Positions 44,105 to 54,280 of a DNA stretch of 64,000 nt are shown here, one piece after another. Position 1 is the first letter of the stretch; every line of letters begins with the position of its first letter. Source of the stretch: a virus; IMG/VR virus record IMGVR_UViG_3300046000_009133, positions 1-64,000 of that record, one strand, 5' to 3'. The notes beneath the pieces are model-generated. The model did no database searches, was not told the origin of the DNA, and saw only the letters and a program-made list of their open reading frames with translations. Both the position numbers and the translations under genes were made by a program.

Positions 44105-44132
44105 TGATGCGCCCCCATGTGGGCCAATGAGT

Positions 44133-44149
44133 ATCACATTTCGCGTGAC
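44133..44149 (-). promoter_or_regulatory. Operator dyad ATCAC-ATTTCGC-GTGAC
   Basis: Clear dyad 29 bases upstream of the AlpA start and on the boundary with the RNA region. It shares both arms and the flanking TAT and ATT with the site at 21749. Confidence 0.6.
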
Positions 44150-44179
44150 ATTCAACTACGAATCACGCTATGAAGATCA

Positions 44180-44697
44180 GGTGAAGTGCAGAGGGATTGA
44201 GGCGATGGGCCAAAACCTCGAACTGTAGCCAAGGAGCCAGCCATGAAGCTGTAACCCGCCTGTAGTTGAACAAACGTTGAAAATCGGCTTTGAGACTAAA
44301 ACGAGGGGCGCGTCTCGGGTAACGCGCAACAAGTTACGAACCGTGGCGGACCTTATGGTTGCAGGTTCATCATGGGAATAGGCCACAGATACCCATGGCT
44401 TAAAGGCTGAAGTGACAAAACGCGGCTTGACGACGCCAGTAGCAGCCCAACCGTCTGCGTGGTCCCGGAAATACGGGACAACCGCTTTCTGGCGGTGCAT
44501 CATTGGAGAAATTGGGCATAGTTTCTCTGTAATACCAATGCCAAGGTTTTGATGCACCCCCTGAGCGCGGAAAACGACACTTAGTAAGCGGGCCTGACAC
44601 CACGCAGAGAAGTGAAGGGTGATCGCCGTGCTCTCCATATCCCTCCATGGGATGACTGCCCTGTCAAACTGGCTCCTGCTTCGGCGGGAGCCTTTTT
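44180..44697 (+). ncRNA. Candidate large structured RNA
   Basis: This region of about 520 bases has no convincing gene. Read rightward it holds several strong inverted repeats: GCGCGT/ACGCGC (44308-44327), CATGGG/CCCATG (44371-44397), GTCCCG/CGGGAC (44462-44479), and a nested set from 44494 to 44558 where GGTGCATCA/TGATGCACC encloses ATTGG/CCAAT and GAGAAA/TTTCTC. It ends in a strong intrinsic terminator, followed at once by an HNH gene. This is the layout of a structured RNA, not of a coding gene. I could not match it to tmRNA, RNase P or a group I intron. The 5' end is a guess. Confidence 0.6.
44671..44697 (+). terminator. Intrinsic terminator of the RNA
   Basis: GGCTCCTGC-TTCG-GCGGGAGCC followed by TTTTT: a 9-bp stem with one G-T pair, a stable UUCG tetraloop and a T tract. 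The HNH start is only 14 bases downstream, so its expression would need read-through. Confidence 0.88.
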
Positions 44698-44710: not shown

Positions 44711-45619
44711 GTGCCGAAAAGAGTAGATTTCACGGGTCAAGTAATTGGCGAAGTTCGTGTGGTAACTTACCTTGGCGAATACAAGTACGCTTGCGTTTGC
44801 TCATGTGGGGAAACCTATACGGCCAACTATCAGCATCTCACAAAATCGTTGAATCCAAACTGCGGATGTACCCCGCAAACACGGAAACCAAGAATAGATC
44901 TTTCTGGAAAGCGTTTCGGAAAGTTACAGGTGCTATCCTACGCGAAACGCAGCAATTGGCGGTGCCTGTGTGACTGCGGCAAAGAAACCATTGTGAACAG
45001 TCAAAACCTAAAGAAAGGCGCCACTAAGTCATGTGGCTGCGGACGCGGTTTATTTGACTTAAATGGAATGAAATTCGGTAGATGGACGGTTTTATCAAAG
45101 GTAACCGTTGCCGAACGGAAAACTTACTATGGAAGTAAATATCTATGCCAGTGCGAATGTGGCACAATAAGAGAAGTTTATGCAAGTGCTCTAAATAAGA
45201 TCGAAGGCGCTGCCGGCAGATCAGCAAGTTGTGGCTGTCTAATGCGCGAAATAGTTACGAAAATGAGAACTACCCACGGCAAAACCAACACTTCACAATT
45301 TCAAATGTGGCAGAACGCCAAAAACAGAGCTAAAGCGAAGAAACTGCCGTTCACAATATCCGTGGATGATATTGTTACGCCAGCGACCTGCCCCCTCCTT
45401 GGTATTCCGCTGCTCGCATCGAAAGTAAAAAAGAATCCTGGTAGCCCAAGCTTGGACCGAATCTTACCTCATCGGGGCTATGTCAAAGGCAACATTCAAG
45501 TAATTTCAGATAAAGCAAACACGATAAAAAATAATTCATCGTTCGTGGATTTTGAAAAAATTTACCTCAATTGGAAAGCTACTATTAGCAGAACTGATCT
45601 CAGTGAACTGCTACGATAA
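44711..45619 (+). CDS. HNH endonuclease with CxCG...SCGC zinc repeats, 302 aa
   Basis: Four modules of the form C-x-C-G-x...-C-G-C (for example CDCGKETIVNSQNLKKGATKSCGCG) fill the first 190 residues. A C-terminal HNH-like nuclease follows: TCPLLGIPL, SPSLDRILPHRGYVKGNIQVIS, ANTIKNNSSF. The modules probably bind DNA through zinc. It is rightward in a leftward region and lower in GC than its neighbours, which suggests a homing-type mobile gene. The start is GTG. The end is TDLSELLR, the shared phage peptide. Confidence 0.85.
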   Translation: MPKRVDFTGQVIGEVRVVTYLGEYKYACVCSCGETYTANYQHLTKSLNPNCGCTPQTRKPRIDLSGKRFGKLQVLSYAKRSNWRCLCDCGKETIVNSQNLKKGATKSCGCGRGLFDLNGMKFGRWTVLSKVTVAERKTYYGSKYLCQCECGTIREVYASALNKIEGAAGRSASCGCLMREIVTKMRTTHGKTNTSQFQMWQNAKNRAKAKKLPFTISVDDIVTPATCPLLGIPLLASKVKKNPGSPSLDRILPHRGYVKGNIQVISDKANTIKNNSSFVDFEKIYLNWKATISRTDLSELLR

Positions 45620-51440: not shown

Positions 51441-53831
51441 TCAACATTTATAGAGAAAATTTTGAATTATGCGATCCTGAGTTGCACCTTTCTCTTGCAA
51501 CACGTCCAATGCGCGTTCATCATAGGTGCCTTCAGCAATGATGGGATAAATCAGCACTTGCTTCGTTTGTCCAGCGCGAGGCAGCCGCATGTTGGCCTGC
51601 TGCCACAGTTCCAGCGACCAGGTGAGATCGAACCATGCCGCGAGGTGCCCTCCATACTGGAGGTTTGTGCCGTGGCCGATCGAATTATGAGAGACGAACA
51701 TATCGCCTTGCTTGTTGCGGATCAAGAAGCGATGGCGCGGCCCGCAGTTCACTAGGTCGTAGACATCGGCTCTCCGCTCAACATCAACTCCAGAGAACGC
51801 TGTGCCATCAGTCTGCGCCGGCGACCTGTCGCGTTCGGCCCCGTTCCGTACATCGAAGCCTTCGCGTCCCTCACAGCTTCTTCTGCACTCATTCCTTGCT
51901 TCATGCGACTGCGCAGACGAGTCTTTGTTATCCCGCTCCGTCGACACACTTCCGCAAGATGAAGATGTTCCCCCTGAAATCCCAGAAGCAGGTTGTTCCG
52001 TTTGTTTGACTGTTGTGCGAACGGAGTGACCCAAGTGCAGTTTTCGACACAGTAGTTGCCGTTTACGTCCACTCTTTCCAAAGTGGAAAACTCCCGGTAG
52101 TTGGTAGCCATGTCTCTGAAAAAATTCTCGAAAGTTCGCCAGTCCCGCGATACTGAAATGCCTCTGGCGCCGTAGTTCTCCCAATCCTGCGACTTCGGGT
52201 TCAGACAGCGATCCTTCATGCCGTTCCAAATCCTGTATATCCGACTGGCGCTCATATGATGATGTTTTTCTGTCTGCAGAGCACAATGTCGGCAGAACTT
52301 TCGTCCCGACGAAGTGTGTTTTTTGACATTCTGCATCGTGGTGCAGGACATCGCCCAGCATTCCGAGCATCGCACGATAACGAGCGTCATCTCCCTTGTA
52401 GGTGTACTGCGCCCTTTCTCTAGTTGCGTAAGAATTTCCAACACTATCAGCCCTTTCCCATAGATCGTTGACCAGAATCTTGTGATCCGGTGTCATTTCG
52501 ATACCAAATACGCTGATTACGGGCTTGAAGCCCGAGTACGAACATCCCTCGTGTTCGACAAACTGCTCACCATCGAAGACGCGATCAGTGCTCAGGACAT
52601 CCGCGATCTTGATCCATCCGCGGAACTCGGTCAAAACTTCTGTCTCACCAGCCAAGCAGGCGGGGTGAGCTGCCAATTTCTTGATCTTTCCCCGATTCCA
52701 GTCAGCAACCAGATCACCCTTATACTCGTTGGCAACCACCGCGTCAGGATGGTGCTTCAGGATCATGTCTTTGGTGAATTTGTAGCCGTAGAAGATCAAC
52801 CAGTTTTCATCCGGCGCCATTTCAAGAAGTTCGTTCAGCGCCTCAATCTTTGCCTCGTGAACGTGCGCCACGCTGCGGTCTTCGCGATAGGCACCACCAC
52901 CGGCCATCTGCATGAGTTTATTCGCCAGAACGCCTTTCGAGACCGCCTCAACATCGTGGATCTGCGAGTAGAGCGTCTTCTCAAGCTCGCGGTATTCCTC
53001 CATCGCTTTGGGCGGCAGCCGCACGCGCATCGGGATGAACTGTGCATCCTCAGACACCTTCTTCGGGGGAATCGTGACGGCAAGGTCGCCCATCTGCGAC
53101 AGGATGCCTGTTTCAGCATTTCCCTTCGGCGTGATGGTGTGATTGTAAGGGTCTTTGTCGAACCACCGTTTTTCGAAATCGCTCTTGTCGCGTCCGAGCG
53201 CGGCACCCTGATCCAGCAGATACGATTGACCCCAGAGCCCTTTCAAATCGCCGGGTGTGCCGGTCAACTCGACGATGCGCTTGATCTTGCGGCGGGCAGT
53301 GGTCATCACACCGAAGCGAGTCATGTTGCCGCCCGCTCGCGCCTTGACCACAATCTCGCCGGTTGCCTTGTTGACGGTCTTCACTTTGGTCGGCAGAGTG
53401 CGGCCTTCCCCGGCACGGAACCGGGACGACTCGTCGATGATCACCATATCCCAGTACCAGTTTTCGATGGTGCGGATTTGTTTGGCGAGCCACGGTAAGT
53501 TTTCGAAGTTGATCGTGGTGATCTCGGCGCGACGGTTGATCGCGCTAATGCGTTCTTCTGCGGTCCCAACCGCGACCGCGCAACTGACGGCTTGTGTCCG
53601 CTGCCAGACTTTCAGTTCGTCGGGCCAAGTGTTCATGGCGACAAAGCGGGGGCCGATCATAAGAACGTGCTGCACTGTCAACCGGTTCAGCAAACTGACA
53701 GTTCCATCCAGACTACCACCTGTCTTGCCTTGGCTCATGTCAGCAATGATCATCACCGCCTCACGCTCTTGCACGAGGCGGCTGATCAGTTTCTGCCCGT
53801 CCCAGAGGTCGTCAGGACTGCGAATGGGCAT
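51441..53831 (-). CDS. SNF2-type DEAD/DEAH helicase interrupted by an intein, 796 aa
   Basis: The helicase has ADMSQGKTGG (Walker A), IIDESSRF (DEAH-like box) and LTGTP in the first lobe. It resembles phage SNF2/DEAH helicases that often accompany VRR-NUC nucleases. The second lobe is cut at LAAHPA by a 325-aa intein, with SIGHGTNLQYGG and RAGQTKQVLIYP after it. Rejoined, HPASIGHGTNLQ gives helicase motif V. The ORF extends to 53966, but the ATG at 53831 overlaps the dcd stop. Confidence 0.92.
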   Translation of the reverse strand: MPIRSPDDLWDGQKLISRLVQEREAVMIIADMSQGKTGGSLDGTVSLLNRLTVQHVLMIGPRFVAMNTWPDELKVWQRTQAVSCAVAVGTAEERISAINRRAEITTINFENLPWLAKQIRTIENWYWDMVIIDESSRFRAGEGRTLPTKVKTVNKATGEIVVKARAGGNMTRFGVMTTARRKIKRIVELTGTPGDLKGLWGQSYLLDQGAALGRDKSDFEKRWFDKDPYNHTITPKGNAETGILSQMGDLAVTIPPKKVSEDAQFIPMRVRLPPKAMEEYRELEKTLYSQIHDVEAVSKGVLANKLMQMAGGGAYREDRSVAHVHEAKIEALNELLEMAPDENWLIFYGYKFTKDMILKHHPDAVVANEYKGDLVADWNRGKIKKLAAHPACLAGETEVLTEFRGWIKIADVLSTDRVFDGEQFVEHEGCSYSGFKPVISVFGIEMTPDHKILVNDLWERADSVGNSYATRERAQYTYKGDDARYRAMLGMLGDVLHHDAECQKTHFVGTKVLPTLCSADRKTSSYERQSDIQDLERHEGSLSEPEVAGLGELRRQRHFSIAGLANFREFFQRHGYQLPGVFHFGKSGRKRQLLCRKLHLGHSVRTTVKQTEQPASGISGGTSSSCGSVSTERDNKDSSAQSHEARNECRRSCEGREGFDVRNGAERDRSPAQTDGTAFSGVDVERRADVYDLVNCGPRHRFLIRNKQGDMFVSHNSIGHGTNLQYGGHLAAWFDLTWSLELWQQANMRLPRAGQTKQVLIYPIIAEGTYDERALDVLQEKGATQDRIIQNFLYKC
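51684..52658 (-). mobile_element. Intein in the helicase, 325 aa
   Basis: The first residue is Cys (CLAGETEVLT, block A; codon 52658-52656). Block B is VFGIEMTPDHKILV. The last part, DVYDLVNCGPRHRFLIRN (block F) and VSHN (block G; Asn codon 51686-51684), is followed by Ser. All catalytic residues for splicing are present. Between the two splicing parts, the main frame is low-complexity and has no endonuclease. The HNH gene lies there in another frame. Confidence 0.9.
51752..52444 (-). CDS. HNH homing endonuclease encoded in an alternate frame inside the intein, 230 aa
   Basis: The frame is +1 relative to the intein. It has two CxxC-type zinc pairs (CSEC, CRHC) and an HNH core: SRIYRIWNGMKDRCLN, WENYGARGISV, FREFSTLERVDVNGNY-type residues and CVENCTWVTPFAQQSNKRNN. 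A helix-turn-helix-like part follows (LAEVCRRSGITKTRLRSRMKQG). The start is GTG at 52444, 7 nt after AAAGG. The end overlaps intein block F. It should cut intein-free alleles to spread the intein. Confidence 0.85.
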   Translation of the reverse strand: MLEILTQLEKGRSTPTREMTLVIVRCSECWAMSCTTMQNVKKHTSSGRKFCRHCALQTEKHHHMSASRIYRIWNGMKDRCLNPKSQDWENYGARGISVSRDWRTFENFFRDMATNYREFSTLERVDVNGNYCVENCTWVTPFAQQSNKRNNLLLGFQGEHLHLAEVCRRSGITKTRLRSRMKQGMSAEEAVRDAKASMYGTGPNATGRRRRLMAQRSLELMLSGEPMSTT

Positions 53832-54280
53832 CAGTTTTGCAGGATTGCCGGGATGGGACGGTCGGCCTGCCCTTGATACTTGCCACGGTACTGCGCCGGT
53901 TGCCGCAACTGATGGAACAGAACCTGCGCGATACCAGATCCCGCCACAATTCGAAGCGGTTTCCACCCGTGGTAAATCAACTCAAGAGTCAACCAACCTT
54001 CCCATCCGCTTTCGATCACGGTGTTAAAGACCGACAGTTTGCGCCGTGCCCAGGTGCTCTTGTCATGAACCACACCGACCAGATCGTCAGGCATCTGGAA
54101 ATGTTCAATCGTGGATGCCAACACGAAGCGGCGCAGCGGATGCAGCACCACATCCTGTTTAATGCGAATGTCGTAGCCTGCTTCGCTCAGGCCATAGGAG
54201 ACACCGTGGAGTCGCATCTTCGCACCCATCATATCCGTGATGGGTGCTGCATTCAGAAGTGCTTGCTGATTGACGATCAT
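53831..54280 (-). CDS. dCTP deaminase, 149 aa
   Basis: GYDIRIKQDVVL, DKSTWARRKLSVFNTVIESGWEGWLTLEL and AQVLFHQL...YRGKYQGQ match dCTP deaminase. It makes dUTP from dCTP and so feeds dTMP synthesis by ThyX. The start is ATG 54280, since the longer frame runs into the NrdJ end. Confidence 0.88.
   Translation of the reverse strand: MIVNQQALLNAAPITDMMGAKMRLHGVSYGLSEAGYDIRIKQDVVLHPLRRFVLASTIEHFQMPDDLVGVVHDKSTWARRKLSVFNTVIESGWEGWLTLELIYHGWKPLRIVAGSGIAQVLFHQLRQPAQYRGKYQGQADRPIPAILQN

What the first reader, a model, noticed from the sequence alone, without database searches (positions are those of the whole stretch)
44180..44697. Large structured RNA candidate next to an HNH gene
About 520 bases without a convincing gene hold at least five inverted repeats, including a three-level nested one (44494-44558), and end in a UUCG-loop terminator. 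A GTG-started HNH gene with zinc repeats follows at once. RNA followed by a nuclease gene recalls HEARO/omega RNAs with IscB, and large ornate phage RNAs (GOLLD, ROOL), but the protein here has no RuvC domain. It may be a new RNA class or RNA-guided or RNA-regulated mobile unit.
Basis: partly seen in the sequence, partly recalled or inferred. Interest (0 to 1): 0.85.

Follow-up and report, generated by a model that had tools for sequence, protein, structure and literature searches.

The report
Conserved phage RNA beside integrase
Between the integrase and excisionase genes of a temperate bacterial virus lies a gene-free stretch that looks like a folded RNA; one 22-base piece of it is repeated letter for letter in four other viruses and is in no RNA catalogue, while the nuclease gene beside it appears to be an unrelated passenger.

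Summary
The stretch is real and gene-free, but it is not an RNA-plus-nuclease unit. The window is a temperate Casjensviridae-like phage. The stretch fills the gap between int (46807-45611, minus) and alpA (44155-43922, minus) and ends in a strong plus-strand terminator. As a whole it is only modestly over-structured (about top 2% of the window). Two parts are conserved elsewhere. (A) A 21-bp imperfect hairpin, 44482-44570, recurs in the same int-alpA gap of phage contig L060 (covariance model E 4e-4, two compensatory pairs). (B) A 3' module, 44563-44634, whose 22-nt core GGCCTGACACCACGCAGAGAAG is identical in L060, S-ESS1, L054 and L055, in different gene contexts. Rfam and a full-text search do not know it. 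L060 has A and B without the HNH gene, and close relatives lack HNH in that gap, so HNH is probably a separate insertion and the HEARO/IscB analogy fails. The 153-aa frame has no relatives. Best reading: a divergently transcribed, roughly 517-nt phage RNA with a new recurring regulatory module, perhaps controlling read-through of the terminator behind it. RNA rather than a DNA site is favoured but not proven.

The parts
44130..44160 (-). alpA promoter/operator (TTGAATGTCACGCGAAATGTGATACT)
   Evidence: same sequence upstream of alpA in relatives
44145..44174 (+). candidate divergent promoter GTGACA-N18-TATGAA (inferred), predicted start about 44181
   Evidence: GTGAC[AT]-N17/18-TA in 7 of 9 relatives with GTGAC; score not above background
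44181..44697 (+). proposed noncoding transcript
   Evidence: no gene; terminator at its end; transcription not shown
44454..44463 (+). 10 nt complementary to 44599-44608 in the conserved core (alternative pairing, window only)
44482..44570 (+). hairpin A: 21-nt imperfect arms 44482-44502 and 44550-44570 around a 47-nt loop with an inner hairpin
   Evidence: covariance model of this hairpin alone finds L060 246-344 (E 4e-4); two compensatory pairs; unique in the window
44563..44634 (+). 3' module: stem P1 44563-44570 with 44627-44634 around the conserved core
44591..44612 (+). invariant 22-nt core GGCCTGACACCACGCAGAGAAG
   Evidence: identical in L060, S-ESS1, L054, L055
44671..44697 (+). intrinsic terminator with UUCG loop and T5
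44711..45619 (+). HNH endonuclease gene, judged a separate passenger
   Evidence: phrog_374 E 5e-42, phrog_3322; absent from this place in relatives

Best explanation
The stretch is a noncoding RNA gene of a temperate phage, transcribed from about 44181 away from alpA and ended by the terminator at 44671-44697. Its 3' part carries a compact module (stem P1 plus an invariant 22-nt core) that several phages carry in the untranslated stretch between genes. I propose that the module works in cis on the transcript being made: it influences whether RNA polymerase stops at, or passes, the terminator that follows and so reaches the next gene (HNH here, terminase in L055). Hairpin A and P1 share bases 44567-44570, and 44454-44463 can pair with the core, so in this phage the module could be switched off by alternative pairing. 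Shown: conservation of hairpin A and of the module, the terminator, absence of a supported gene, occurrence without HNH. Inferred: transcription, RNA rather than DNA as the acting form, terminator control, the switch.
For: Core identical in five phages in four gene contexts. In S-ESS1, L054 and L055 it lies on the strand of the flanking genes, shortly 3' of a stop codon, and in L055 and the window an intrinsic terminator follows. P1 and hairpin A stay paired in L060: two compensatory changes and three wobble switches, all G-U on the + strand. HNH starts 14 nt after the terminator, so a transcript from upstream must cross it. A divergent promoter-like arrangement is shared by relatives. In relative L012 the same gap holds a tRNA-Cys gene on the same strand, so a noncoding RNA gene can stand there.
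Against: Only two sequences share hairpin A and five share the module, so covariation is thin, and pair-shuffle controls cannot reach significance with two rows. A contiguous invariant 22-mer is as typical of a DNA site or antisense target as of an RNA fold. Flank pairing is significant against shuffles in L060 (p 0.001), weak in the window (0.035) and not significant in S-ESS1, L054 or L055. S-ESS1, L054 and L060 have no terminator directly behind the module, and in L060 no plus-strand gene follows. The promoter score is not above background.
Confidence: 0.4

Rival explanations
1. DNA site: the repeats and the core are protein-binding sites of the integration/excision region (attP arms, AlpA/Xis sites) or another phage DNA site (for example a replication or regulatory site). 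Inverted copies of one binding site mimic base-pair covariation.
For: The gap follows int directly, where attP of such modules is expected; L012 has a tRNA-Cys gene there, a common attachment target. Most relatives have some long inverted repeat with a 36-65 nt spacer in the gap, with arm sequence changing from phage to phage. Hairpin A arms resemble each other beyond what pairing needs. A contiguous 22-nt invariant block is typical of a DNA site.
Against: S-ESS1 and L055 carry the core with no integrase detected, and in L054 the int-alpA pair lies some 10 kb from the core. No host match within 2 mismatches in 389 Pseudomonadota genomes. Not cos. Wobble changes are G-U on the plus strand in all three cases. 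A plus-strand terminator with no gene in front of it needs an explanation.
Confidence: 0.3
2. Trans-acting small RNA or 3'-UTR element: the transcript is a regulatory RNA or its module a processing/stability element; the invariant core pairs with a target RNA or binds a protein.
For: Position shortly after stop codons in S-ESS1, L054 and L055 and before terminators in the window and L055; L060 has no downstream plus-strand gene to control; an uninterrupted invariant core suits antisense pairing.
Against: No match within 2 mismatches in 389 Pseudomonadota genomes (the reverse strand was searched too), so no conserved host target was seen; phage targets were not searched.
Confidence: 0.2
3. RNA and HNH form one mobile unit (HEARO/omega-RNA-like or intron-like).
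For: Adjacency in the window and an unrelated HNH gene 104 nt after the module in L054.
Against: L060 has hairpin and module without HNH; S-ESS1 and L055 have the module without HNH beside it; the two HNH genes are of different families; no RuvC; no Rfam match; a terminator separates the two.
Confidence: 0.04
4. Degenerate spacer DNA with chance repeats.
For: Folding excess is modest; most of the 5' part (44181-44450) has no detectable relative.
Against: Identical core in five phages and E 4e-4 for hairpin A.
Confidence: 0.06

Closest known systems
int-alpA RNA motif (recalled from memory as a published motif; its name is used in PMC12370729)
   Same: structured RNA candidate near integrase and alpA genes of mobile elements
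   Different: no Rfam match up to E = 10 in the window or in L060; the module here also occurs away from int-alpA
HK022 put RNA (PMC9378689)
   Same: about 70-nt phage RNA element; put acts in cis and lets RNA polymerase pass terminators, which is the mechanism proposed here
   Different: put is two stem-loops behind early promoters of HK022; no sequence likeness is claimed and no function was tested here
HEARO / omega RNA with IscB
   Same: RNA candidate in front of an HNH gene
   Different: no RuvC, no Rfam hit, and the RNA occurs without HNH
GOLLD / ROOL large ornate RNAs (PMC12286853)
   Same: several-hundred-nt RNA candidate in a phage
   Different: no Rfam match; only a hairpin and a roughly 70-nt module are conserved
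Phage HNH endonucleases (phrog_374, phrog_3322)
   Same: family of the adjacent gene
   Different: no difference in kind was seen; it appears to be an ordinary member

Membership tests
int-alpA RNA (Rfam) | match to the Rfam covariance model | tested here: not met
   cmscan: nothing at gathering threshold in the window, nine relatives or L079; none up to E 10 in the target or L060
int-alpA RNA (Rfam) | lies between or near int and alpA | tested here: met
   window and L060; not so for the module in S-ESS1, L054 or L055
HEARO/IscB | match to the RNA model | tested here: not met
HEARO/IscB | partner protein with RuvC and HNH domains | tested here: not met
   302 aa, HNH/endonuclease families only
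GOLLD / ROOL | match to the RNA model | tested here: not met
put-like antitermination RNA | RNA that contacts RNA polymerase and suppresses termination | not testable with these tools
   only position before a terminator in two of five cases
attP core | sequence shared with a host attB | tested here: not met
   no match within 2 mismatches in 389 Pseudomonadota genomes; 385 Alphaproteobacteria gave one 3-mismatch site for a 23-mer; the true hosts may be unsampled
cos site | lies at the packaged genome ends | tested here: not met
   RcGingersnap and RcCWillis ends do not hold the core, and the window record's own end resembles the RcGingersnap left end
structured RNA | base pairs kept by compensatory change | tested here: inconclusive
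   two double and three single-sided changes, none breaking a pair, but only two sequences

The most novel reading that the evidence does not exclude
The 22-nt core with its variable closing stem is a new, recurring phage regulatory RNA class (antiterminator, riboswitch-like or protein-binding element), found in front of packaging, replication and homing genes of otherwise different phages.
Probability: 0.35. Interest if true: 0.7.

Novelty: new variant of a known kind. Interest (0 to 1): 0.5.

Why it matters
A 22-nt sequence kept without a single change in five phages, in different gene settings, is under strong constraint and is in no catalogue searched. If it is RNA it would be a new phage element testable with a single reporter; if it is DNA it would be a recurring phage site of unknown use.

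Tried and rejected
Nucleotide search of the whole 620 nt in phages and plasmids gave only the 29-nt S-ESS1 match, at first easy to dismiss at E 0.05. Two guessed patterns in viral contigs failed; L009 is a chance hit inside a gene. Integrase and terminase scans found relatives without the RNA. Blastn in 385 alphaproteobacterial genomes gave chance hits only. Whole-body alignment of window and L060 is not significant by sequence (p 0.13); the link rests on hairpin A and the module. L018 scored 25 bits with default filters but 7.6 with filters off, so it is not counted. A five-mismatch look-alike beside int in RcCWillis lies in an int-side hairpin also seen in L014 and is not counted. A sequence-only model of the module found no further members in the held loci. 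cos, tRNA, att core and known RNA families were tested and rejected or disfavoured. AlphaFold was not used: the HNH protein is already placed by family.

Full report
What the place is. The window is 64,000 of the 69,667 bases of a virus record. Terminase, integrase and alpA genes, and best matches to Rhodobacter capsulatus phages of the RcGingersnap group (Casjensviridae; int 50%, small terminase 50%), make it a temperate phage of that kind. Those RcD phages form lysogens and have 12-base 5' overhang ends (PMC8601537). The end of the window's record resembles the left genome end of RcGingersnap (CCCGATTCAT...TTTTGAAAAAT), so cos is probably some 25 kb from the target.

The target fills the gap between int and alpA, two genes on the minus strand. 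In relatives this gap is about 80-400 nt, or carries cargo: a 167-aa protein in L017 and L044, a 680-aa gene and small genes in L019 and L021, a tRNA-Cys gene in L012. None of the close relatives whose gap was read has an HNH gene there. In the window the gap is 555 nt plus the HNH gene, whose 3' end overlaps that of int by 9 nt.

Is it noncoding? Yes as far as tested. No frame has a family match. The 153-aa frame has codon use unlike the phage's genes (not decisive, because the real HNH gene scores the same) and no relative. Its only protein-level match, 29 residues in L060, is the translation of the conserved DNA block, which is identical at all 22 positions, third positions included.

Is it structured? 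Folding energy alone is modest (z -2.5 on plus, -1.9 on minus), about the top 2% of strand-windows of the same phage. The nested inverted repeat at 44482-44570 is unusual: it is the only site in 64 kb with 21-nt arms of at least 17 Watson-Crick pairs and a 35-70 nt spacer, and such sites are rare, of the order of ten in 350 kb of related sequence.

The comparison that changed the picture. Blastn of the whole stretch gave one 29-nt match at E 0.05 in Synechococcus virus S-ESS1, also Casjensviridae, in an unannotated stretch about 72 nt after a DUF932 gene. A scan of viral contigs for 16 bases of it returned ten places. S-ESS1, L054, L055 and L060 share a longer block; the others diverge right after the 16-mer and lie in long open frames. 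The core GGCCTGACACCACGCAGAGAAG is identical in all five. L054 and S-ESS1 agree at 36 of 37 bases, E 2e-8; S-ESS1 and L055 share 86% over about 50 nt, E 6e-5. Contexts differ: the int-alpA gap (window, L060); before an HNH_3 gene and a DNA polymerase (L054); after a small gene and before an intrinsic terminator and the small terminase gene (L055); after DUF932 (S-ESS1).

L060 is the most telling relative: terminase, alpA (48%), the gap and an integrase remnant are in the order of the window, without HNH. A covariance model built from the window hairpin alone finds L060 246-344 on the same strand with 26.3 bits, E 4e-4 in 356 kb, while in 303 kb of other sequence the next hit has 15.6 bits. The repeat is partly palindromic, so the model also matches the opposite strands with lower scores. 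The two stems agree in pyrimidine mismatches at the same three positions, and differ by two compensatory pairs and one wobble switch. The 3' module stem P1 is also kept, with two wobble switches. All three wobbles are G-U on the plus strand; a minus-strand RNA would have A-C mismatches. This favours plus-strand RNA but rests on two sequences. In most relatives the gap holds some other long inverted repeat with a 36-65 nt spacer (p 0.007-0.07 in each of seven gaps including the window), which fits either a conserved hairpin or binding sites of changing sequence.

Extent of the RNA. The 3' end is the terminator 44671-44697. The promoter score is not above background.

What it does. The module precedes a terminator in the window and in L055, and lies between genes on the same strand in S-ESS1, L054 and L055. 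HNH starts 14 nt after the terminator and can only be expressed by read-through or from a promoter inside the stretch. A cis-acting control of read-through (works like put RNA of HK022, PMC9378689; membership not claimed) fits best, at about 0.4. Weak points: three of five copies lack a directly following terminator, and L060 has no plus-strand gene behind. The chief rival is a DNA site (0.3). The core is not cos, is not near the integrase of L054, and has no match within 2 mismatches in 389 Pseudomonadota genomes.

RNA plus HNH as one system: not upheld. The 10-bp pairing of 44454-44463 with 44599-44608 would mask the conserved core and was seen in the window only.

Noticed in passing
window 51441-53966 and 51752-52444, both minus: A helicase gene with an intein stays open in one frame while, inside the intein part, another frame (offset 1, same strand) encodes a complete HNH endonuclease (phrog_3377, E 5e-47): an out-of-frame nuclease gene nested in an intein.
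   Followed up: partly
L012 1368-1441, minus: A whole tRNA-Cys (GCA) gene lies in the int-alpA gap of a relative, on the strand of the proposed RNA.
   Followed up: no
L017 1450-1953, L044 1435-1938: The closest integrase relatives (60%) carry a 167-aa gene with a signal-like start between int and alpA; the gap appears to be a cargo site.
   Followed up: no
window 44454-44463 with 44599-44608: Ten perfectly complementary bases that would mask the conserved core, not found in the other carriers.
   Followed up: no
end of the window's record, G000 about 69,620-69,667: Sequence like the left genome end of RcGingersnap, so the contig probably ends at cos.
   Followed up: partly
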